Positions 10,759 through 23,400 of a DNA stretch of 64,000 bases are shown here, piece after piece; the first letter of the stretch is position 1, and each line of letters starts with the position of its first letter. The stretch is from Rikenellaceae bacterium. GTDB taxonomy: Bacteria > Bacteroidota > Bacteroidia > Bacteroidales > UBA932. Both the position numbers and the translations under genes were made by a program. Location: NCBI GenBank assembly GCA_022777205.1, contig JALFGP010000027.1, positions 1-64,000 on the forward strand, in the 5' to 3' direction. The notes beneath the pieces are model-generated. The model had not been told where the DNA came from, made no database searches, and saw only the letters and a list, made by a program, of their open reading frames with translations.

Positions 10759-11832
10759 TTATAAAAGCTCAATGAATTTGTCGAACAAAAACTCCGTGTC
10801 GAGAGGCCCGCTGGATGCCTCCGGATGGAACTGTACGCTGAAGAAAGGTTTGCTGCGATGGCGTATGCCCTCGTTGGTCCCGTCGTTGAGATTGATGAAA
10901 TGGGGTTCCCATTCTTTGTCAAGTGTCTGGGTGTCAACAGCAAATCCGTGATTCTGGGATGTGATGTAGCAGTGGTTGCTGCCGCAGAGCCTAACCGGCT
11001 GATTGTGTCCTCTATGTCCGTATTTGAGCTTGTAGGTGGATGCTCCGGCAGCAAGGCTCATCAGCTGATTGCCCATACATATTCCGAAAATTGGTTTGTC
11101 CCCGTTATATGCCTTGCGTATGTTTTCAACCGTCTTAGTGCAAAGGCTCGGGTTTCCGGGACCATTTGAAATCATAAGTCCGTCCCATTCGAGGCTGTTG
11201 AAATCGTAGTCCCAAGGCACCTGGACCACTTTCACACCTCTGGATGCAAGGCAGTGCAGGATACGGTGTTTCACTCCGCAATCCACCAGCACCACCGTCT
11301 TTTCGCCTTCCCCATATACCCGAGGCTCGCTGCAGCTGGCAAGGGCAACCTGGTTTTCATTGTCAGGGTTGTACCACTGAGGTTCTTCTGCACCTTCCGG
11401 GACTATTTTGCCGAGCATCGCACCTGAATCCCTGATGATACGGGTGAGAGCCCTTGTGTCCACTCCGCATATTCCCGGAACCTTTTCCTCTTTCAGCCAT
11501 TCTTCCAGGCTTGTGCGGGCATCATAGTGGCTGTAGGTCTCGCTATAGTCGGAAATGATGAGTCCTCGGGCCTGTATGCGGTCAGACTCGAAGGTGGTTC
11601 TTATGCCGAATGAGTCCCATTCTTCCTGAGGTACACCGTAATTGCCTACAAGAGGGTAGGTTACGCAGAGTATCTGGCCCGAGTAGGACGGGTCGGTGAG
11701 GCTTTCCGGATAGCCTACCATTGCTGTGGAAAAGACAATTTCGCCGGAGGTGGCCCCGTCATAGCCGAAACTGTAACCTTCGAAACATCTGCCGTTCTGC
11801 AGGAGGAGTTTCGCTTTCTTTCTGTTCATCAT
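10759..11832 (-). CDS. carA: Carbamoyl-phosphate synthase small subunit
   Basis: Class I glutamine amidotransferase GICMGNQLM, NGPGNPSLC, SVQFHPEASSGPLDTE. Confidence 0.95.
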   Translation of the reverse strand: MMNRKKAKLLLQNGRCFEGYSFGYDGATSGEIVFSTAMVGYPESLTDPSYSGQILCVTYPLVGNYGVPQEEWDSFGIRTTFESDRIQARGLIISDYSETYSHYDARTSLEEWLKEEKVPGICGVDTRALTRIIRDSGAMLGKIVPEGAEEPQWYNPDNENQVALASCSEPRVYGEGEKTVVLVDCGVKHRILHCLASRGVKVVQVPWDYDFNSLEWDGLMISNGPGNPSLCTKTVENIRKAYNGDKPIFGICMGNQLMSLAAGASTYKLKYGHRGHNQPVRLCGSNHCYITSQNHGFAVDTQTLDKEWEPHFINLNDGTNEGIRHRSKPFFSVQFHPEASSGPLDTEFLFDKFIELL

Positions 11833-13190
11833 ATCAGTCTGGTTTTGCCTTTGCCCCAAGCTGAGGCTTCGTCCATCAATGTCTTGATTCTGTCGTTGGC
11901 CAAGTTGCCTATGCTGCCAAGGTGGGTGTGGTGCAGGTCTTTGACCGTGAGGGAAGCACCGCCATCAGTCTCCGAAATCCCATCTGAACCTCCGAAACGG
12001 AAGCGCCCCTCGTTGACCTCAATCCCCACTTCCTTATAGGCATCCCTGAAAGGCATCCCGGCGAGAGTTCTGCGGTTGACCTCTTCCACCGTAAACATAT
12101 ATTTATATATGGGATTGTCAAGAATATGTTCATTGATTTCAATATGCCTGAGCATATAAGAGGTCATCTCCAGACACTGGTGAGTGTATTCCAGAGCCGG
12201 AAAAATCACCTCCTTGAGCAATTGCCAGTCCCGGTGGTATCCGTGAATGGTGTTGCTGCACATCATAGCCACGGTATTCTGGGCCGACAGGATCATATTG
12301 CAACGCCCGCGGATGATTTCCCAAACGTCCGGATTCTTCTTGTGAGGCATTATGCTGGAGCCTGTAGTGAGCTCATCCGGGAATTTGATGAACCCGAAAT
12401 TGGGACACATATATGCTATGCAGTCTGAGGCGAATTTATTGAGAGTCAGTGCTATACCCCCTATGGCGGAAGCAATGCACCTTTCCCCTGCACCTCTGCC
12501 CAACTGTGCCGCGACGCTGTTTACGACAGGGGAGTCGAAGCCGAGCAGTTCCGTGGTCATCTCCCTGTCCAGAGGGAAGGAATTGCCGTAGCCCGCAGCT
12601 GAGCCCAGAGGATTGCGGTTGGTGATTTTCCAGCAGCCTCCGCACTCGTACATATTGTCCACAAGAGCTTCAGAGTAGGCCCCGAACCACATTCCGAAGG
12701 AAGATGGCATTGCAATCTGGGTGTGGGTATAGCCCGGAAGCAGCACCTGACTGTATTTCCCGCTGAGGCTCTGGAGCAAGTCGAACAATTCAAGCGTTTC
12801 CTCGCGCAGTTTCAGCAGTTCGTCCCTGAAAAACAGTCTCAGGTCCACGAGCACCTGGTCGTTGCGGGAGCGTCCGGAATGAATCTTCTTGCCCACCTCT
12901 CCAAGCCTCTGTGTAAGAAGAAGTTCGACCTGTGAATGAATATCCTCCACATCCTCTCCGAGCGTGAATTTCCCGGCCCTGATTTCGTTTTCCAGAGCCT
13001 TGAGCCCCTGAATGAGGACTTCGGTTTCATCCCCGCTGAGCAGACCTGTCTTGCCCAGCATTTTCACGTGTGCCATAGACCCGGTCACATCGTAAACTGC
13101 CAGTCTCAGGTCCAGTTCCCTGTCCTTTCCCACCGTGAAATCTTCCACTATACGGGTTGCGCTTTTGCCTTTGTTCCAGAGTGTTGCCAT
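11829..13190 (-). CDS. argH: Argininosuccinate lyase
   Basis: GSSIMPHKKNPDVWE signature; HSGRSRNDQV; overlaps the carA start by 4 bp. Confidence 0.95.
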   Translation of the reverse strand: MATLWNKGKSATRIVEDFTVGKDRELDLRLAVYDVTGSMAHVKMLGKTGLLSGDETEVLIQGLKALENEIRAGKFTLGEDVEDIHSQVELLLTQRLGEVGKKIHSGRSRNDQVLVDLRLFFRDELLKLREETLELFDLLQSLSGKYSQVLLPGYTHTQIAMPSSFGMWFGAYSEALVDNMYECGGCWKITNRNPLGSAAGYGNSFPLDREMTTELLGFDSPVVNSVAAQLGRGAGERCIASAIGGIALTLNKFASDCIAYMCPNFGFIKFPDELTTGSSIMPHKKNPDVWEIIRGRCNMILSAQNTVAMMCSNTIHGYHRDWQLLKEVIFPALEYTHQCLEMTSYMLRHIEINEHILDNPIYKYMFTVEEVNRRTLAGMPFRDAYKEVGIEVNEGRFRFGGSDGISETDGGASLTVKDLHHTHLGSIGNLANDRIKTLMDEASAWGKGKTRLI

Positions 13191-13192
13191 TG

Positions 13193-14272
13193 CTAAAAAT
13201 GTTTGGCGAGTTCGCCTATGAGGTTAATATATGTTTCAATTCCATTTTGCACTTCCTCTACCGTGATGAATTCGTCGCTTTTGTGGGAACGGCTGGATTC
13301 ACCCGGGCCGATTTTCACGCAGTCGGAGTCTATGCGCATCCAGTCCGAAGTGGTGGGGGAGGAGAATTTTTCTATTCCGAGTCCATCCAAGGCTTTGAAA
13401 AGGGGAGAGCCGCTGCGGGTGGCGCTGGAACGGTTGTTCAGGTTTCTTGCCTCGAGGCGGCTTTTGCAGATACTCTGCAGCTCGTCCAATATTTCTGCGC
13501 AGGTATAGACTTCGGTTGGGCGTATGTCTATGGTGAACTCGCAACGGTCCGGAACCACATTATGCGCTGTGCCTGAATGGATTATGGTTACGGTCTTATG
13601 CACCTCGCCCATTGTGGGGGAGATTCTGGAGAATTTGTGGGAACGGATGGCCGCTATGTCGTCGAGGGCAATGTAGAGGGCGTTGATGCCTTCGTTCCGG
13701 GCCGCGTGGCCGCTTTTGCCTTCAGCCACAGCATCGATTACCAGCAGGCCCCTTTCGCTCGTTGCTGCTTTCAGGCCGGTGGGTTCGCCTATGATTACCA
13801 TTTCGGGGTGGAGAGGACCTTCCGGACCATAGAGCCAGCGGGCACCGTTCTCTCCGCTTCTTTCTTCTTCGCAACTCAGGGCAAGAATCAGGTTGAAGGG
13901 CAGTTCACGGCTCAGGAAGTGCCTGTAGGCGGCTATCATTGCCACAACGCAGCCCCCGTCGTCATTGGAACCCAGACCGTAGATGACGTGCTGGTTGTTG
14001 TCGGGACCGGCCGGGTCGAAGGGGTTGCATGTCCAGCCCTGGCATACTGGGACAGTGTCTATGTGGGCATCTAGGACCAGTGTTTTTTTTTCCGGGTCCA
14101 TTTTCTCCAGCCCGGCTACTAGGTTGTTGCGCAGTCTTTCGTGCACAACACCCCAGGCAGACAGACGGCTGCCGATCAGGTCAGCTACTGCTGTTTCCTC
14201 AAAAGAAACTGAGGGAACTGTCACCATTTCTCTCAGCAGGTTCAGACTTTGTAATCCTATTATCTTGTCCAT
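13193..14272 (-). CDS. M20-family N-acyl-ornithine/citrulline deacylase (ArgE/DapE-like)
   Basis: LVLDAHIDTVPVCQGW, SNDDGGCVVAMIAA, ALSCEEERSGENGA; position in arg operon. Confidence 0.88.
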   Translation of the reverse strand: MDKIIGLQSLNLLREMVTVPSVSFEETAVADLIGSRLSAWGVVHERLRNNLVAGLEKMDPEKKTLVLDAHIDTVPVCQGWTCNPFDPAGPDNNQHVIYGLGSNDDGGCVVAMIAAYRHFLSRELPFNLILALSCEEERSGENGARWLYGPEGPLHPEMVIIGEPTGLKAATSERGLLVIDAVAEGKSGHAARNEGINALYIALDDIAAIRSHKFSRISPTMGEVHKTVTIIHSGTAHNVVPDRCEFTIDIRPTEVYTCAEILDELQSICKSRLEARNLNNRSSATRSGSPLFKALDGLGIEKFSSPTTSDWMRIDSDCVKIGPGESSRSHKSDEFITVEEVQNGIETYINLIGELAKHF

Positions 14273-14316
14273 ATTTCCATTCTGATGCCCAAACAAGTCT
14301 GGAAAGACTTGCATCT

Positions 14317-15087
14317 TTACAGTTTTATTACAGTTCCGATGCCGTTGTCAAGCCCGGAGGAATTGCGGATGGTGACACCGGATGCCCCGTTGCGCAGGCA
14401 CAGGAATGCATTTTCCAGCTTAGGAATCATTCCCTCTGCCACTATGCCCTCCTTCTTGAGCCTCTCAAAAAGCCCCGGATCAATCTCCGGTATGACACTC
14501 CCTTCATCATCCTTGTCCCTCAGCACTCCGTTCTTCTCAAAGCACACCACAAGTTCTGTCCCAAGAGCCGCTGCCACCGATGAAGCCACTGTGTCTGCAT
14601 TGGTATTGAGCAGCTTTCCCTTCCTGTCGTGGTTTATTGCACTCAGCACCGGCACAAGTCCCATCCCGCAGAATGATTCAAGCAGTTCAGTGTTCACACT
14701 CGCCGCAGTCACATCACCCACGGCTCCGAAATCCACCATCTGTCCCTCAATCTCAATCGGAGGTCTCCTGGTTGCGCAGATGACATTCCCGTCGCAACCC
14801 GAAAGCCCGATTGCATTGCAGCCGAAACTCTGCAGCAGGGCCACCACATTCTTGTTGCACAGCCCCGCATATACCCCGGTCACAACCTTCAGCGTTTCCG
14901 GATCCGTGACTCTGCGTCCCTGAATCTTCACCGGCCTGATGCCCATCAACTCCTGCACCCTGCTTGCCGCCACACCTCCTCCGTGCACCAGCATCCGGGG
15001 CCCGTCCAATGACGCGAACTCCCTGCAGAAGGTCTCCAGAGCCGCCTGGTCGTCCACCACGTTTCCGCCTATTTTGTAAACTTTCAT
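14317..15087 (-). CDS. argB: N-acetyl(acyl)glutamate kinase
   Basis: MKVYKIGGNVVDD, LVHGGGVAASRVQELMG, KQ/IPKLENAFLCLRNGASGVTI. Confidence 0.92.
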   Translation of the reverse strand: MKVYKIGGNVVDDQAALETFCREFASLDGPRMLVHGGGVAASRVQELMGIRPVKIQGRRVTDPETLKVVTGVYAGLCNKNVVALLQSFGCNAIGLSGCDGNVICATRRPPIEIEGQMVDFGAVGDVTAASVNTELLESFCGMGLVPVLSAINHDRKGKLLNTNADTVASSVAAALGTELVVCFEKNGVLRDKDDEGSVIPEIDPGLFERLKKEGIVAEGMIPKLENAFLCLRNGASGVTIRNSSGLDNGIGTVIKL

Positions 15088-15090
15088 AGA

Positions 15091-16041
15091 TTACTCTGAA
15101 ATCAACATCTTGAGTACCGTCTGCGCGGAAACCACCCTGTTTGCAGCTTCCGGAATCACCAGCGACCGCTCTGATTCAATAACATCATCGCTGACTATCA
15201 TATTCCTGCGGACAGGCAGGCAGTGCATAAAGAAGGCATTGTCAGTCAGCGCCATCTTCTCCGCAGTCACTGTCCATCCCATATCCCGACAAATCACCTT
15301 GCCGTAATTTTCAGCCCCGTATGGTGCCCAGTTCTTGGCATAGACGAAATCCGCCCCTTCCAGAGCCTCGTCCTGATTGTGGGTCACTTTGGCATTTCCG
15401 ACAAATTCCGGTGCAAGGTCATAGCCTTCCGGATTGGCAATAACGAACTCATAGTCAGTCATATTCAGTCCTTCAGCAAAGGAATTCGGCACGGCCTGAG
15501 GGAGAGCCTTGGGATGGGGCGCCCAGGTCATCACCACCTTCGGGCGGGCCTTGGTCTTGTGTTCTTCGATGGTAATCAGGTCTGCAAAAGTCTGGAGAGG
15601 ATGCCTTGTGGCCGCCTCCATACTGAACACCGGCTTGCCTGAATACTTGATGAACTGGTTGAGGATTACCTCATTGTAATCGTCTTCACGGCTTTCGAAG
15701 CGGGCAAAGGACCTGACGCCTATCACGTCGCAATAACTGCCCATAACGGGTATGGCTTCCAGCAGATGTTCGCTCTTGTCGGAGTCCATAATCACTCCTC
15801 GTTCAGTCTCCAGTTTCCACGCTCCCTGGTTCACGTCCAGCACCATCACGTTCATCCCCAGATTGAGGGCGGCCTTCTGAGTGCTCAGGCGCGTGCGCAG
15901 ACTGTTGTTGAAAAACACCAGGAGAGCAGTCTTGTTCTCGCCCAGTTTTTTGTCGGCAAAAGGGTTCTGTTTCACCCACAAAGCCTCCTTCAATGCAGCT
16001 TGCAGGTCCCCAAGTTGAGTTATTGATGTAAATGTTTTCAT
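15091..16041 (-). CDS. argF': N-acylornithine carbamoyltransferase (SOTCase/AOTCase type)
   Basis: FFNNSLRTRLSTQKAALNLGMNVMVLDVNQGAWKLETERGVIMDSDKSEHLLEAIPVMG, FMHCLPVRRNMIVSDDVIES; resembles the Bacteroides fragilis succinylornithine transcarbamylase. Confidence 0.9.
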   Translation of the reverse strand: MKTFTSITQLGDLQAALKEALWVKQNPFADKKLGENKTALLVFFNNSLRTRLSTQKAALNLGMNVMVLDVNQGAWKLETERGVIMDSDKSEHLLEAIPVMGSYCDVIGVRSFARFESREDDYNEVILNQFIKYSGKPVFSMEAATRHPLQTFADLITIEEHKTKARPKVVMTWAPHPKALPQAVPNSFAEGLNMTDYEFVIANPEGYDLAPEFVGNAKVTHNQDEALEGADFVYAKNWAPYGAENYGKVICRDMGWTVTAEKMALTDNAFFMHCLPVRRNMIVSDDVIESERSLVIPEAANRVVSAQTVLKMLISE

Positions 16042-17171
16042 ATCAGTTCATTCCAGGCTTTCACAAAGGATTTCGCCGTGTCCATTCCGAGGGTAAGGGC
16101 AGGCAGAAGGCGTATGACCTTGGCTCCCGATGCTCCCGTGAAGAAATGCTTCTCGAAAAGCAGTCTCTCCCTCAGTTTCTCGTAGCCAGGTTTCACTTCC
16201 AGTCCTATCATAAGTCCGCGTCCACGGAACTCAGTCAATGCCGGATTGCCTTTGAAAGCCTCCCTGAGCCAGTCACCGACCTTAGCTGCGTTTGCTATAA
16301 GGTTCTCGTTCTCAATCACATCGCACACCGCAAGAGCTGCAGTGCAAGCCAGATGGTTGCCTCCGAAAGTGGTGCCCAGCATTCCGTAACGGGCCTGAAT
16401 GGTCGGGCTTATCATAACGGCTCCGATGGGAAAACCGTTGCCTATGCCCTTGGCCATTGTGACCAGGTCAGCCCTGATGCCGCTCCACTGGTGGGCAAAG
16501 TATTTTCCGCTCCGGCCGCATCCGGACTGTATTTCATCCAGAATCAGCAGGACTCCATATTGGTCGCAAAGCCTGCGCAGCTCACGAAGGAAGGCATCGC
16601 TCGGCATCTGTATTCCGGCCACCCCCTGTATTCCCTCAATCATCACAGCTGCATATTCTCCTCCGGACAGTTCTTTCTCCACTGCATTCAAGTCATTGAG
16701 AGCCACAAATTTGACATTATCCGTTCCGTTGAAAGGGGAGCGTATGTCCGGATTGTCAGTGGCTGCAACCGCGCCGGAAGTCCTGCCGTGGAAGGCGTGC
16801 CCGAAAGCCAGAATCTTGGCTTTACCGGTATGGAAGGAGGCCAGCTTCAAGGCATTTTCATTTGCCTCGGCTCCGCTGTTGCAGAGGAAGAGTTTGTAGT
16901 CGTCGTAATTGCTCAACTTGCCCAGTCTGTGCGCAAGGTCGCGCTGCAGGTGGTTCTGTACGGCATTGGAGTAAAATCCGAGTTCTCCAAGCTGCTCAGT
17001 GAGCATTTTCACATAGTGCGGATGGCAGTGGCCTATGCTGATTACCGCGTGGCCGCCGTAGAGGTCCGTATAGACTTCTCCGTTCTTGTCAATAAGTCTG
17101 GTGCCGAAGCCTTTGACCGGCTCGATGTCCCAAGTTTTGTAAACGTCAAAAAGTTCCATAGTCATTCGCAT
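16038..17171 (-). CDS. argD: Acetyl(succinyl)ornithine aminotransferase
   Basis: PLP class III: LFLCNSGAEANENALKLA, LLILDEIQSGCGRSGKYFAHQ, VTMAKGIGNGFPIGAV. Confidence 0.94.
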   Translation of the reverse strand: MRMTMELFDVYKTWDIEPVKGFGTRLIDKNGEVYTDLYGGHAVISIGHCHPHYVKMLTEQLGELGFYSNAVQNHLQRDLAHRLGKLSNYDDYKLFLCNSGAEANENALKLASFHTGKAKILAFGHAFHGRTSGAVAATDNPDIRSPFNGTDNVKFVALNDLNAVEKELSGGEYAAVMIEGIQGVAGIQMPSDAFLRELRRLCDQYGVLLILDEIQSGCGRSGKYFAHQWSGIRADLVTMAKGIGNGFPIGAVMISPTIQARYGMLGTTFGGNHLACTAALAVCDVIENENLIANAAKVGDWLREAFKGNPALTEFRGRGLMIGLEVKPGYEKLRERLLFEKHFFTGASGAKVIRLLPALTLGMDTAKSFVKAWNELI

Positions 17172-17212
17172 TCAATAAGTTGCACTTCCTGAGTGAGAGA
17201 TGCGAAACCATC

Positions 17213-18175
17213 TCAGAAAGCCGATGCCTTCAGAGAGAGTCCCGTGCGCTCATCCAATCCGAGCATTATATTCATATTTTGTACCGCTTGCCCGGAAGCA
17301 CCCTTGAGAAGATTGTCCAAAATGCTGGTGATTACTATTTTACCGTTATGTATTTCTGTGTGTATGAGGCATTTGTTTGTATTCACCACCTGCTTGAGGT
17401 CCGGAGCGAAAGGGCAGTGGAAGGTGAAAGCAGAGCAGCTATAGAAATCCTTGTAAAGCGCCGTTGCCTCTTCTTCCGTGAGCTGGCATCCCGTCTGGAC
17501 ATTTGCAAATATGCCCCTGGCGAAATCACCGCGCATAGGTATGAAATTGATTGCCGGCACCTCGCATCCCGACAGCAGTCCCAGATTCCTGCGTATTTCA
17601 ATAAGGTGCTGGTGGGAGAAGACCTTGTAGGTGGACAGGTTGTTGTCCCTCCAGCTGAAATGGGTGGTGGCGGAAGGTTTCACTCCGGCTCCTGTGGAAC
17701 CTGTGAGGGCTGTCACCTGCACTTCCTCTTTCAGCAGACCCGCCTTTGCAAGCGGAAGTAGGGCCAGTTGTATCGCTGTGGCAAAACATCCCGGATTTGC
17801 AATCTTGTCCGCCCCGGCAATGCGTCCTTTCTGCCATTCCGGCAAGCCATAGACATAGCCCTCGGACTCATCTCTGAAATCTTGAGCCAAGTCTATGATT
17901 TTCAGACCTTCGGGGCAGGGATGAGCCTCCCAGAACTCACGGCTTTTGCCGTGTGCCGAGCAGAGGAATACCAAATCCACGCTGTCCAAAGGAGCGTCTT
18001 CGCAGAATTGCATATCGGTTTCCCCGTAGATGCCTCCGTGCACCTGCCAGAGAAAGTTTCCTGCATTGCTCGATGACTGCACGAAGGACAGTTGCACTTC
18101 AGGATGGTTCAGCAGCAGCCTTATCAGCTCTCCGGCGGTATAGCCCGCTCCACCTATGATACCTATTTTATACAT
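17213..18175 (-). CDS. argC: N-acyl-gamma-glutamyl-phosphate reductase
   Basis: MYKIGIIGGAGYTAGELIRLLLNHPEV, ANPGCFATAIQLALLPL. Confidence 0.95.
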   Translation of the reverse strand: MYKIGIIGGAGYTAGELIRLLLNHPEVQLSFVQSSSNAGNFLWQVHGGIYGETDMQFCEDAPLDSVDLVFLCSAHGKSREFWEAHPCPEGLKIIDLAQDFRDESEGYVYGLPEWQKGRIAGADKIANPGCFATAIQLALLPLAKAGLLKEEVQVTALTGSTGAGVKPSATTHFSWRDNNLSTYKVFSHQHLIEIRRNLGLLSGCEVPAINFIPMRGDFARGIFANVQTGCQLTEEEATALYKDFYSCSAFTFHCPFAPDLKQVVNTNKCLIHTEIHNGKIVITSILDNLLKGASGQAVQNMNIMLGLDERTGLSLKASAF

Positions 18176-18199
18176 ACTTCAGTTTCGTAAGTCCTAAAT

Positions 18200-19402
18200 T
18201 CATAGCATCTCGTCAGGATGGGCCCCGTAATACATTCTCAAAGGATTGGAGAGCATCTTGATGAAGCCTTTGGCATCCTCGGCAGTCCAGCCCTTCTGGC
18301 CTTCTCCGTATTCCCCGAGTTTGGATTTGAGCAAATCGTCAGGTGAATCCACTCCCACTGTGGAGAAGGAATAAGGACGGAGTTCGAGTGTCACAGTTCC
18401 ATTGACATTGCGCTGGCTGCTTTCCAGCATTGCCTCGATGTCCCTCATCACCGGCTCCATATACTGGCTCTCGTGCAGGAACATTCCGTACCAGTTGGCC
18501 ACCTGGTCCTTCCAGTACTGCTGCCACTTCGAGAGCGTGAACTTTTCAAGGAATTTGTGAGCCCCAATAATGAGCATAGGTGCAGCAGCCTCGAATCCAA
18601 CCCTGCCCTTGATGCCCACGATGGTATCTCCCACGTGCATATCCCTGCCAATGCCATAAGCCGAGCCGATTTCCTCAACAGCCTGGATTGCAGCGATTTT
18701 GTCGTCAAAATGCTTCCCGTTCACCCCGACCAGTTCCCCGTGACTGAACTCCAGGGCCAGAATCTCGCTGCCGGTTTTGCTCACCTGCTTCAGATAGGCG
18801 CTTTCAGGCAAGCCTTGGGTCGAGTCAAGGATTTCGCCGCCGCAGATGGATGTGCCCCAAATCCCCACATTGTATGAATATTTGAGCTTGGTGAAATCTG
18901 CGAAGAAGCCGTGAGAGTTGAGGTAGTCCACTTCCTCCTTGCGGCTGAGTGTTTTGTCGCGTGTAAGGGTGATGATTTCCATTTCGGGACACATCACGAG
19001 GAAGGTCATATCGAAGCGTACCTGGTCGTTGCCTGCCCCGGTGGACCCGTGTGCAATGGCGTGGGCTCCGATTTTCCTGGCATATTCGGCAATAGCCATA
19101 CCCTGGAAAATCCTCTCGGATGAAACCGACACGGGATAAGTCCCGTTCCTGAGCACATTGCCCCAGACCATATACTTGAGGCTCTTCTCATAGTATTGCT
19201 TTGTGACATCGAGGGTTACATATTCCTTTGCGCCGAGAAGAAGGGCGTTTTCCTCATTTTTCTTCAACTGTTCCGGGCTGAATCCGCCTGTGTTGGCGCA
19301 GGCTGCATAGACTTCATAACCCATTTCTTTGGCCAGATACATCACCGTGTAGGAGGTGTCCAGACCGCCGCTGAATGCGACCACTACTTTTTTCTTTTCC
19401 AT
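18200..19402 (-). CDS. argG: Argininosuccinate synthase
   Basis: VVVAFSGGLDTSYTVMYLAKE, AHGSTGAGNDQVRFD. Confidence 0.95.
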   Translation of the reverse strand: MEKKKVVVAFSGGLDTSYTVMYLAKEMGYEVYAACANTGGFSPEQLKKNEENALLLGAKEYVTLDVTKQYYEKSLKYMVWGNVLRNGTYPVSVSSERIFQGMAIAEYARKIGAHAIAHGSTGAGNDQVRFDMTFLVMCPEMEIITLTRDKTLSRKEEVDYLNSHGFFADFTKLKYSYNVGIWGTSICGGEILDSTQGLPESAYLKQVSKTGSEILALEFSHGELVGVNGKHFDDKIAAIQAVEEIGSAYGIGRDMHVGDTIVGIKGRVGFEAAAPMLIIGAHKFLEKFTLSKWQQYWKDQVANWYGMFLHESQYMEPVMRDIEAMLESSQRNVNGTVTLELRPYSFSTVGVDSPDDLLKSKLGEYGEGQKGWTAEDAKGFIKMLSNPLRMYYGAHPDEML

Positions 19403-19404
19403 AT

Positions 19405-19980
19405 TTATTTTTTCAATTCTTCGGGTTTGGGACTTTGAATCTCAAGATGCTCCTTCGGGTCGTAGAGCAGACCGGTGCAGATGCACATCTTATAGTCGTG
19501 ACTTTTGAGTATGTCGAAATGCCGGCAACCCTCGCAGCCTTTCCAGAACTCAGGATCGTCGGTGAGTTCGGCAAACGGCACAGGTCTGAAGCCGAATTCG
19601 TAGTTCATCTTCATCACTGCCGCACCTGTGGTGATGGAGAAAATCTTGGCGTCCGGGTAAAGTGCCCGTGAGAGCAGGAAGGTCTGGCGTTTGATTTTCT
19701 TGGCCACTCCCATCCCCCTGAATTCGTGCGCCACGATGAGTCCGGAATTGGCTACGAAACTCTTTCCGCCCCAGGACTCGATGTAGGAGAATCCCGCAAA
19801 GCGTCCGTCGTCCGTCAGAGCAATCACGGCCTTGCCCGCCATTATTTTCTCACATATATATTCAGGAGTGCGGTTGGCGATTCCCGTTTTCCTTTCGAGG
19901 GATGAAATGTAGATTTCGTCGCAGATTGCCTGGGCGTAAACTGTGTGGCTCTGGTTCGCCACCATTACTTCGATTTCCAT
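19405..19980 (-). CDS. GNAT acyltransferase, candidate first step of arginine synthesis (N-acylglutamate synthase)
   Basis: GNAT fold motifs (VIALTDDGRFAGFSYIESW, VAHEFRGMGVAKKIKRQTF); first gene of the arg operon. Confidence 0.75.
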   Translation of the reverse strand: MEIEVMVANQSHTVYAQAICDEIYISSLERKTGIANRTPEYICEKIMAGKAVIALTDDGRFAGFSYIESWGGKSFVANSGLIVAHEFRGMGVAKKIKRQTFLLSRALYPDAKIFSITTGAAVMKMNYEFGFRPVPFAELTDDPEFWKGCEGCRHFDILKSHDYKMCICTGLLYDPKEHLEIQSPKPEELKK

Positions 19981-20039
19981 ATTTTTTGTTTTTTCACCGG
20001 CTTGGACTCACATTTCTCTCTGGCACACAACGTCCCGAA

Positions 20040-20235
20040 TGGCAAGACAAACCGAGATTGTCAATTGCAATTTATGATAGAAAATTCTTTGCGTTATTGC
20101 GAGTGTGGTAATTTGTAAGCTGCTGGTCTTGCGCTGCTTACAGAAGAATTTTCCGAAAATGTGGGAGGTTTCTAAGCCTCCTATCTTCGGACAGAAAAAC
20201 AAAGTATGAATCCTGTTTCCTTCATAACGCGGCAA
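20040..20235 (-). ncRNA. Candidate structured 5' leader/cis-RNA of the arg operon (or a structured intergenic repeat)
   Basis: Several inverted repeats: GAAAATTCTT 20080-20089 / AAGAATTTTC 20144-20153; GTAAGC 20115-20120 / GCTTAC 20136-20141 enclosed by it; CCGAA 20153-20157 + GGAGG 20164-20168 / CCTCC 20177-20181 + TTCGG 20186-20190; GACAA 20046-20050 / TTGTC 20058-20062. Confidence 0.45.
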
Positions 20236-20240
20236 AGATA
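20233..20240 (-). promoter_or_regulatory. Putative -7 box TATCTTTG for the arg operon
   Basis: Plus caaagata; would give a leader of roughly 245 nt before the GNAT gene. Confidence 0.35.
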
Positions 20241-20335
20241 ATAATTTTTCAAATTATCACCAACGCCGAATGTCACGAATTTGACTGATTTCAGCTTTTT
20301 GATTTCAGACTTCAAAGATATGAATTAAAAAATGT

Positions 20336-20406: not shown

Positions 20407-23400
20407 ATGCGATTGAACTTGACTTCCTTGTTTTTGACAGGTCTGCTTCTGGGACTGTCATACAACTTTACTGCAAGGGCTGTGGACTTGCCGGATTACG
20501 ATTTCCACACTATATCCAATACTACCTATTACGGTGGTATCCATGGAATTACGAAAGACCGTACAGGAAGAATCTGGTTCAGTGGCCATGAGGCTGTCTG
20601 CGTTTATGACGGGAAAACATTCGTGAGAATGGAGAAGGAGATAATGAAAATGTCCCCCTATGATTCGTGGAATTTCGGTGAGGTCAAGACTGCCGGAAAT
20701 GATTCCAGGCTTTTTGTTGGAAGTAATCACGGAATGATGGCATTGGATTATGACAGCATGTCTTTTGAATGTCTGTTTCCAGGTAACATCGGTCCTTTTG
20801 ATGTCAATGGGAAAGGGGAGGTATGGATGATAAGAGACGGAAGAGTGGAGATGTTCAATGCAAACGACTGCTCATCCGGCACATTTCTCCCGTCTTTTTC
20901 CCAGTTTCCATCATTTGTTTCGTCGGTTTTCTGTACGGAGAACGATGTTTATGTTTCAGTAGGGAATGTCCTGATGAAATACGATCCGGATAATTGCAGG
21001 TTTGACCGTTTCACCGTTGTCGGGGGGGGTAGAACAGAAATAAAGGATGTGCTGAGTTACGGGGAGGATGTATTTGTACTTACCTTGATGGATGGCTTGT
21101 TCAAATGCCGCCCGGACGGTACTGTTCTCCACTCCGGATTGGGCCGGATGGTTTCGGACAGTTCCACGAGTGCAAAAATGCTCTATGCCGATCCCTCAGG
21201 GGTCATCTGGGTGGCGACTCAGACAGGGCTCCTGCTGATGGATCCGGAGTCGGGAAAAACAAAGGTCTTCAAGATGGACCTGATGCGTCCGTATTCTCTT
21301 CCGAACAATTCCGTGTGGTCCATATTTCCTGATCCTGACGGCGGCTTGTGGATAGGCACATACGGAGGAAAACTGGCTTACAGCACGATTTCCTCCAGTG
21401 ATGTGAGGTTTTTCTCTGCCTGTGCCGGTGGTTTGTCCCACCCTATAGTGAGCAGTTTCGTCGAGGACCGTCACGGGAATTTATGGATTGGTACGGAAGG
21501 TGGTGGAATTTCTGTGTGGGACAGGTCTTCCGGTGAATTCAGGTATTTCACTCATTCTGACGGAAGCTCTCTTGCGTCTGATTTTATCAAGAAACTTTGG
21601 AAAGACGATGACGGTGTCATTTGGGTTGCGTCATTCAATGGCGGTCTGCAGGTCTATGAGGAAAAGACCCGGAAATTCAGGACAAAGGCTGGTTCTTCCT
21701 CCCAGTATACTTTGAGTGTATATGATTTTCTGGAGGATGGAGACGGTGGATTGTGGATGTCAAGTCCCGATGAGAATCTCAAGCATCTCGACGAAGAAGG
21801 GAAAGTGATGGCATCTGTCTTGTTCACCGATTCCGATGGACATCATTCCGGTACTTCCGCGGAGATGATATACCGTGATGATGAGGGGCATCTGTGCCTC
21901 CTTTCGCGTTCAGGCCTGATTGTGGCAGATGCTGCATCCGGAAGGGTCGTAAGATTCCATCATCTTGACGGTGTGCCCTTCCAGTCCAACAATTTAATCT
22001 GTTTCTGCCGCATGTCTTCAGGTGACATCTGGTTTGGAACAGGAGAGGGTGTTAATGTCCTGCGGAAAGACGGTGGTTACAGGCACCTGGTTGACTCTGT
22101 CGGGGAATCACTTTCAGGAAGGTTCGTTTTTGGCATTGTCGAAGATGAGTCTTCCGGTAATGTCTGGCTCAGTACGGACGATGGCCTTTATTTGTATTCA
22201 GGAGAAAAGGGACTGTTCTCCAGGTCAAGCATTGACAACAACGAAAACTGCGGGTCATATTATATAAGGTCATATTACAAGACCTCGCGCGGGGAGATTC
22301 TTTTCGGAGGTACTTCCGGATTTGTGATGTTCAATCCGTCAAGGATGGCATTCAATACACAGAAACCGCAAGTTTTCTTCACTGATTTTCTGATTGACAA
22401 CACCGTCTCCCTGCCCGGGACCAAAGATTCCCCTCTCAAGAAATCCGTCCTGACATATACTTCCGCTGAATATGATGATTGTCTCGTCTTGAACCACAGG
22501 CAAACCAATTTCGGGATACGGTTGTCTTCCGACAGCTATCTGAATGCAGAAAAGAACAGATACGCCTACAGGATGAAAGGATTATCCGATGATTGGATGG
22601 AACTGCCTGAGGGGCAAAGGATGGTCTCATTCTTCAATATGCGTCCGGGTAAATACCGGTTTGAGGCAAAGGCGGCAAATAATGATGGAATCTGGGGGGA
22701 CAAGGTGACATCGCTTCAGATAGAGGTCCGTCCGTCTCCATTCCTTTCAGTGTGGGCGTATTGCCTATATGCTTTGATAATCTCCCTTTCTGCATTTGCC
22801 ATTTGGAGGTTCTCAATGAACAAGAAGATACTGGAACAGAAACTGGAAATGGAAAGAGTGAATGAGGAAAACATCAGACAGATGACTCAGGCGAGAATCA
22901 ATTTCTTCACAAGCATATCCCACGACCTGAAGACTCCGCTTACACTCGTTGTGGATCCTCTGAAGCAGTTGAAGGAGCATCTGCCTCAGGAGTCTCCGGC
23001 AATCGCAGATGTGCGTCTGATAGAACAAAATGTCGTAAGAATCAAGAGGATGATTGTCCAGTTGCTTCAGTTCAGGGAGATTGAAAGCCAGAAGATTGTG
23101 CTGGACAGGCGGTCGGGAGACATTGTCCGCTTCATAAAAGATATATTTTCCCTTTTTGACAACATAGCGGCGAACAAGGAGATTGAGACGGAATTCCGTA
23201 GCGAGATGGAAAGTTTCTACACCATGTTCGATTACGATGTGATGGAGAAAATAGTCACCAATCTCATTTCCAATGCCTTTAAATACACTCCTCAGGGTTG
23301 TTTCGTCAGGATTGCCATATCAAGGCTTGGAAGTGTGGACACTTCAGGTCAGGAGTGGCTTTCAATTGTGGTCACCAACACGGGAACGGAGATTCCTGAT

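What the first reader, a model, noticed from the sequence alone, without database searches (positions are those of the whole stretch)
20040..20240. Strongly structured, probably non-coding leader before the arginine operon
Within ~150 nt there is a 10-bp perfect stem (GAAAATTCTT 20080-20089 / AAGAATTTTC 20144-20153) enclosing a second stem (GTAAGC 20115-20120 / GCTTAC 20136-20141, extendable to 9 bp with one mismatch). A separate two-part hairpin follows (CCGAA..GGAGG / CCTCC..TTCGG, 20153-20190), plus a small hairpin at 20046-20062. A TATCTTTG box at 20233-20240 could start a ~245-nt leader. The minus-strand ORF here looks like a chance reading of structured RNA. It could be a new arginine-responsive riboswitch/attenuator or a structured interspersed repeat. 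I have a vague, unverifiable impression of similar sequence in other Bacteroidales.
Basis: partly seen in the sequence, partly recalled or inferred. Interest (0 to 1): 0.72.

Follow-up and report, generated by a model that had tools for sequence, protein, structure and literature searches.

The report
Arginine leader-peptide switch before arginine operon
In front of the arginine-making genes of a gut bacterium lies a tiny hidden gene, rich in a rare arginine codon, plus conserved RNA hairpins that together probably let the cell sense arginine shortage; it seems to stand in for the arginine repressor protein these bacteria have lost.

Summary
The structures are real and the leader looks functional, but it is not non-coding. 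About 100 versions of this peptide precede the same argA-like gene across one Bacteroidales family (GTDB Cryptobacteroides and relatives). A frame-blind search found the CGA motif in frame in 105 of 107 leaders. CGA is 53% of the leaders' arginine codons against 3% in the window's genes. No genome with the leader has the ArgR repressor. Best reading: an arginine leader-peptide attenuator that matches no Rfam family. That core survives in lineages without the Arg peptide, so it has its own, unknown role. Its bulge resembles the arginine-binding motif of TAR/7SK RNA, an untested lead. In the same family, hisG and trp genes have His-run and Trp-run leader peptides, so attenuation is general there.

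The parts
20233..20264 (-). promoter: -7 box TATCTTTG (20240-20233) with a weak TTG/-33 element about 20 nt upstream
   Evidence: Sequence; TAnnTTTG is the Bacteroides -7 consensus (PMC7366714); the box sits 6-10 nt before the uORF ATG in nearly all leaders. No transcript data.
20181..20225 (-). leader peptide gene, 14 codons plus stop, MKETGFILCFSVRR*; control codons CGA AGA at 20189-20184, stop 20183-20181
   Evidence: Frame-blind phase test 105/107 in frame, 13 of 15 distinct spacings in frame; CGA 53% vs 3.1% of Arg codons; family-wide
20153..20190 (-). hairpin A: CCGAAGAU..GGAGG / CCUCC..AUUUUCGG; its 5' arm is the Arg codons, the stop and GGAGG
   Evidence: 93.5% of cells paired, 0/500 shuffles; covariation score 3/500
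20080..20153 (-). stem B (10 bp, 20080-20089/20144-20153) enclosing a lineage-specific stem (20115-20120/20136-20141)
   Evidence: Sequence; GGAAATTC../..GAATTTTC recurs in many Cryptobacteroides leaders but is missing in others; the inner stem is absent even in the nearest relative L003
20042..20068 (-). core hairpin GCAAUUGACAAUCUCGGUUUGUCUUGC: 9 bp, UU bulge, 7-nt loop
   Evidence: Nearly invariant in 35 distinct versions; 100% paired, one compensatory pair; one strong copy per genome in 54 of 200 genus genomes
19405..19980 (-). first gene of the operon, GNAT acetyltransferase (argA-like, predicted)
   Evidence: Weak sequence match to solved GNAT PA4794; no Pfam or NCBIfam match; operon position
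11829..19402 (-). rest of the operon: argG, argC, argD, argF', argB, argE-like, argH
   Evidence: NCBIfam matches; ORFs

Best explanation
It is an arginine leader-peptide attenuator for the operon argA-like/argG/C/D/F'/B/E/H. Transcription starts a few nucleotides before the ATG of a 14-codon leader gene, so the leader gene is nearly leaderless. When charged arginyl-tRNA is plentiful, the ribosome reads the rare CGA codon and AGA, reaches the stop and leaves; hairpin A (whose 5' arm is those codons) folds and expression of the operon is cut. When arginyl-tRNA is short, the ribosome stalls on CGA/AGA and covers the 5' arm of hairpin A, the hairpin cannot fold, and the operon is expressed. Shown by comparison: the ORF is coding, arginine/CGA-rich, family-wide, tied to argA and mutually exclusive with ArgR, and hairpin A overlaps the control codons. 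Inferred: arginyl-tRNA as the signal and the direction of control. Unresolved: what hairpin A acts through. Intrinsic termination fits only some lineages; in Cryptobacteroides, Rho-dependent termination or mRNA decay (as in the Salmonella speF leader) is my best guess, with the conserved core hairpin as a second, independent input.
For: The ORF ends in Arg codons at the same place in about 100 distinct versions over many genera. Frame-blind phase test 105/107, 13 of 15 distinct spacings in frame, P 3e-5. CGA is 53% of leader Arg codons against 3.1% in the window's genes. Always upstream of the argA-like gene in the loci inspected. No ArgR in any of 56 leader genomes; ArgR in 7 of 32 without a leader (Fisher P 5e-4), and ArgR is usual outside the family (30 of 37). 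Hairpin A spans the control codons and shows covariation; unrelated hairpins sit at the same place in other genera. Attenuators with His and Trp runs occur in the same family.
Against: No transcript, ribosome or expression data. Only 10 of 115 leaders have a terminator-like hairpin with a U-run, so the classical output is missing. Folding does not predict a general change in access to the argA start on stalling. Some relatives have argA without leader or ArgR. The ArgR association is not corrected for shared ancestry, and the ArgR carriers come from only three genera. The peptides were partly selected for a terminal Arg, so raw Arg enrichment is partly circular (the phase and CGA results are not).
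Confidence: 0.8

Rival explanations
1. Ligand-sensing RNA: the core hairpin, not the peptide, is the main arginine sensor (a small riboswitch), and the uORF only tunes it.
For: The core is nearly invariant and one per genome, always before argA where inspected. It persists in lineages without an Arg uORF (L205, L192, L216, L085, L080). In L205 and L216 its 3' arm can pair with a downstream segment (z -5.3, -3.4). Its bulge context equals that of the TAR/7SK arginine sandwich (PMC6189040).
Against: The core is absent from all other genera of the family examined, which keep the uORF. Alternative pairing is not enriched in general. The core is very small and binding is untested.
Confidence: 0.1
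2. Protein site: the core is bound by a regulator, either as RNA or as a DNA operator (GACAA-N7-TTGTC dyad).
For: Sequence invariance beyond what pairing needs; in L205-type leaders it sits directly after the promoter.
Against: The outer arms pair only with a one-sided 2-nt bulge, which suits RNA better than a DNA dyad. Its distance from the promoter varies widely (it can lie some 150 nt downstream) while it stays 18-119 nt before argA. No candidate protein is known.
Confidence: 0.35
3. Arrest peptide: the nascent peptide itself stalls the ribosome in response to free arginine (TnaC-like), rather than through tRNA shortage.
For: The Arg codons sit right before the stop; a VRR/IRR tail recurs in several genera.
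Against: The residue before CGA varies (V, I, A, D, G), the tail varies (RR*, RL*, RI*, RRCA*, RVRA*) and the body of the peptide is hardly conserved; what is conserved is the rare codon.
Confidence: 0.12
4. Chance: an ordinary structured 5' UTR with a meaningless short ORF.
For: Short ORFs are common.
Against: Phase test, CGA bias, fixed place after the promoter and family-wide conservation.
Confidence: 0.02

Closest known systems
Bacteroid-trp leader (Rfam RF01692) and classical trp/his attenuators
   Same: Short leader ORF with codons for the end product before a biosynthetic operon, and a hairpin at the control codons. RF01692 matches a trp leader of the same family (L295).
   Different: Arginine, not Trp or His; near-leaderless start; use of the rarest Arg codon; no conserved intrinsic terminator; extra core hairpin. 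The window does not match RF01692.
Salmonella speF leader (orf34; PMC6386406)
   Same: Leader ORF with consecutive Arg codons whose reading rate sets alternative RNA structures; no simple intrinsic terminator needed (Rho, RNase G).
   Different: Controls a putrescine gene and is positively tied to ornithine; other phylum; no sequence relation tested.
ArgR repressor control of arg operons
   Same: Same pathway and logical role; outside the family argR usually lies just upstream of argA.
   Different: Protein repressor; absent from all leader-bearing genomes tested.
TAR/7SK arginine sandwich motif (PMC6189040)
   Same: A two-nucleotide bulge after an A-U pair and before G-C and A-U pairs; here the first bulge U is invariant and the second tolerates change.
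   Different: A short local resemblance only; no binding shown; unrelated origin.
tetQ translational attenuator of Bacteroides (listed in PMC5418344)
   Same: Attenuator in Bacteroides that controls translation of the downstream gene.
   Different: Responds to tetracycline; controls a resistance gene.

Membership tests
Amino-acid leader-peptide attenuator | Translated short ORF between promoter and operon | tested here: met
   Frame-blind phase test and fixed place after the promoter; translation itself not measured
Amino-acid leader-peptide attenuator | Codons for the pathway's end product enriched in the ORF | tested here: met
   Arg 18.8% vs 5.0% of codons (partly by selection); CGA 53% vs 3.1% of Arg codons
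Amino-acid leader-peptide attenuator | Hairpin that a stalled ribosome would block or switch | tested here: met
   Hairpin A includes the control codons; analogous hairpins in other genera
Amino-acid leader-peptide attenuator | Regulation by amino-acid supply | not testable with these tools
   No expression data
Classical transcription attenuator with intrinsic terminator | GC hairpin followed by a U-run before the operon | tested here: not met
   10 of 115 leaders only; none in Cryptobacteroides
Bacteroid-trp leader RF01692 | Rfam covariance model match | tested here: not met
   No match in the window
Riboswitch | Conserved aptamer that binds a ligand | tested here: inconclusive
   Conserved core hairpin; binding cannot be tested here
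Riboswitch | Expression platform competing with the aptamer | tested here: inconclusive
   Strong alternative pairing only in a few lineages (L205, L216); not enriched in general
Interspersed repeat | Several copies per genome | tested here: not met
   One copy in the own genome; one core per genome in the genus

The most novel reading that the evidence does not exclude
The 27-nt core hairpin is a natural arginine-binding RNA that uses a TAR/7SK-type arginine sandwich bulge, working together with an Arg-codon leader peptide, so that one leader senses both free arginine and arginyl-tRNA (or the Arg-rich nascent peptide docks on the core in cis).
Probability: 0.08. Interest if true: 0.88.

Novelty: new variant of a known kind. 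Interest (0 to 1): 0.6.

Why it matters
Rfam 15 gives no match for this leader, and the searches I made of the paper library found no description of it. It links loss of a repressor protein (ArgR) to gain of an RNA/peptide switch in one bacterial family, with clean presence/absence cases for studying regulatory turnover. It shows a near-leaderless leader gene built around the rarest arginine codon. It also exposes a one-per-genome, nearly invariant RNA hairpin of unknown partner, whose bulge suggests a direct arginine-binding test that a simple in-line probing gel could decide.

Tried and rejected
Interspersed repeat: rejected. Known Rfam RNA: none (the one sub-threshold hit, a human lncRNA on the other strand, is chance). 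Long minus-strand ORF 20008-20235: a chance frame, not the conserved uORF frame. Second coding ORF across the core: rejected, because the loop NN gives stop codons in one frame and there is no consistent start in the others. Pairing of the loop NN with the uORF end: no covariation seen. General alternative pairing between the core arms and the rest of the leader: not enriched (mean z -0.4 to +0.2). Sequestration of the argA start by the unstalled leader: no consistent effect. Intrinsic terminator in Cryptobacteroides: none. Rho site: C exceeds G between uORF and argA in 94 of 107 leaders, suggestive only, no control made. The core outside the family: an order-wide pattern search gave one chance match inside another gene. 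Literature searches for arginine attenuators or leader peptides in Bacteroidetes found nothing that describes this element; the library is open-access only.

Full report
Setting. The window lies in a GTDB Cryptobacteroides genome (order Bacteroidales). The nearest named relative of the argA-like protein is 99% identical, in an uncultured Bacteroidales MAG, and named Cryptobacteroides species follow. The leader is on the minus strand, upstream of a GNAT gene (19405-19980) that opens an operon with argG, argC, argD, argF', argB, an argE-like gene and argH. On the other side a divergent gene for a hybrid two-component sensor starts at 20407.

The observation. All stems are present at the stated coordinates, and the region folds better than dinucleotide shuffles (z -2.8 for the whole leader; z -3.2 for 20040-20200). 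It is single-copy and matches no Rfam family.

A hidden leader peptide. A genus-wide search found the leader in many species, before the same argA-like gene in the loci inspected. Aligning them showed that the conserved start is an ATG 6-10 nt after a TAnnTTTG box, opening a short ORF that ends in arginine codons: MKETGFILCFSVRR* in the window, others such as MLCVYYQSSRRDRR*, MNFSRYILVRI*, MSAVYSHNTSKRARR*. In other genera of the family the same plan appears with other bodies and tails (MKNSSHHINSTFFHRHVRRCA*, MKKTLYILRVRVRA*, MGMINHTIFHARVRR*). A search that ignored reading frame ([GA]NCCGA after the promoter-proximal ATG) gave 105 of 107 distinct leaders in frame, with 13 of 15 distinct spacings in frame (P 3e-5). 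In 103 distinct peptides CGA is 53% of arginine codons, against 3.1% in the window's long ORFs. Among 31 other short ORFs found by the same promoter rule only two had two or more Arg in the last five residues; one is itself an arg leader missed in the first set, and the other (L250) also precedes argA, in another family, in a genome without ArgR. Caveat: the peptides were collected partly by having an Arg near the end, so the raw Arg enrichment is partly circular; the phase and CGA results are not.

Near-leaderless start. With the -7 consensus TAnnTTTG (PMC7366714) transcription should begin only a few nucleotides before the ATG. This is inferred. In B. thetaiotaomicron only about 3.7% of 5' UTRs are shorter than 10 nt (PMC7366714), so this would be unusual. 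The His and Trp leader ORFs of the same family start further from the box, roughly 11-26 nt.

Hairpins. The 5' arm of hairpin A is made of the last Arg codons, the stop and GGAGG. Its pairing is supported by comparison (93.5% of cells paired, 0 of 500 shuffles; covariation score 3 of 500). Similar hairpins directly at the control codons recur with unrelated sequence in other genera (for example AGGGC..GCCCT or TGGGC..GCCCA in one genus). A ribosome stalled on CGA would cover that arm. A U-tract follows only in some lineages (10 of 115), so intrinsic termination cannot be the general output. The Salmonella speF leader works through Rho and RNase G and depends on two consecutive Arg codons (PMC6386406); this is the closest functional model.

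Exchange with ArgR. The ArgR C-terminal domain occurs in 9 of 150 family genomes; in eight of them it lies just upstream of argA, and in G073 on another contig. None of the 56 genomes with a strictly scored leader has ArgR, against 7 of 32 without (Fisher P 5e-4, not corrected for shared ancestry). Outside the family 30 of 37 argA genomes have ArgR, mostly just upstream of argA. The attenuator therefore looks like a replacement for the repressor. Some family members have neither.

The core. Cryptobacteroides leaders carry GCAAUUGACAAUCNNGGUUUGUCUUGC 18-119 nt before argA. In 35 distinct versions every position is invariant or nearly so except the loop NN and the second bulge base; one compensatory pair change (C-G to U-A) supports the outer stem. 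A covariance model found one strong copy per genome in 54 of 200 sampled genus genomes. Several lineages keep the core but have no Arg uORF, three of them with the core directly after the promoter (L205, L192, L216); there a downstream segment can pair with its 3' arm (z -5.3 in L205, -3.4 in L216). The core is therefore a separate element. Its bulge (UU, with an A-U pair below and G-C then A-U pairs above) equals the secondary structure described for the TAR and 7SK arginine sandwich (PMC6189040), including tolerance at the second bulge base. I treat this as a lead only: so short a context can arise by chance, and near-total sequence invariance would equally suit a protein site.

Wider picture. 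hisG in eight loci (six genera) of the family is preceded by ORFs with runs of 3-7 His codons, and trp genes in four loci by ORFs with WWW; L279, L292 and L300, the three read out in full, have clear intrinsic terminators. One trp leader matches Rfam's Bacteroid-trp. Leader-peptide attenuation is thus ordinary in this group for Trp (known) and apparently for His. The arginine leader is the variant that lacks a conserved terminator, starts almost at the 5' end, uses the rare codon CGA and, in one genus, carries the core.

Verdict. New variant of a known kind. That it is an arginine leader-peptide attenuator: confidence about 0.8. The output step and the role of the core remain open.

Noticed in passing
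L279, L280, L282, L286, L287, L289, L290, L292 (upstream of hisG); L295, L297, L300, L301 (upstream of trp genes): His-run leader peptides (e.g. MSKRTNINALHHHHHHHRHHKW..) and Trp-run ones (e.g. MSDMKYKITDKFWWWRSQFIQGRE); L279, L292 and L300 have intrinsic terminators. Only L295 passes Rfam Bacteroid-trp of the loci tested.
   Followed up: partly
L205, L192, L216: Core hairpin directly after the promoter with no Arg uORF, followed by a segment complementary to its 3' arm and an AT-rich inverted repeat just before argA.
   Followed up: partly
L250 (G406, another family): A uORF MKNELFHIEIFTSSTGRFIRKGEYHSPRPGRG sits after a TATATTTG box before argA in a genome without ArgR: possibly an independent arginine leader.
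   Followed up: no
L144 (G229): A short reading frame upstream of argA ends SSRRRSRRCNSVRR*, the most Arg-rich leader tail seen.
   Followed up: no
window 19405-19980: The argA-like GNAT protein has no Pfam or NCBIfam match above threshold and only a weak match to solved PA4794, although it heads the arginine operon.
   Followed up: no
L042, L045, L048, L050, L051, L053 (genus g16); L095, L100, L103, L108 (genus g12): Other genera have their own conserved hairpin in the place of the core: GGGACAGCAGAATCCC in g16 and GCAGGTANAGTCTCCTGC in g12.
   Followed up: no
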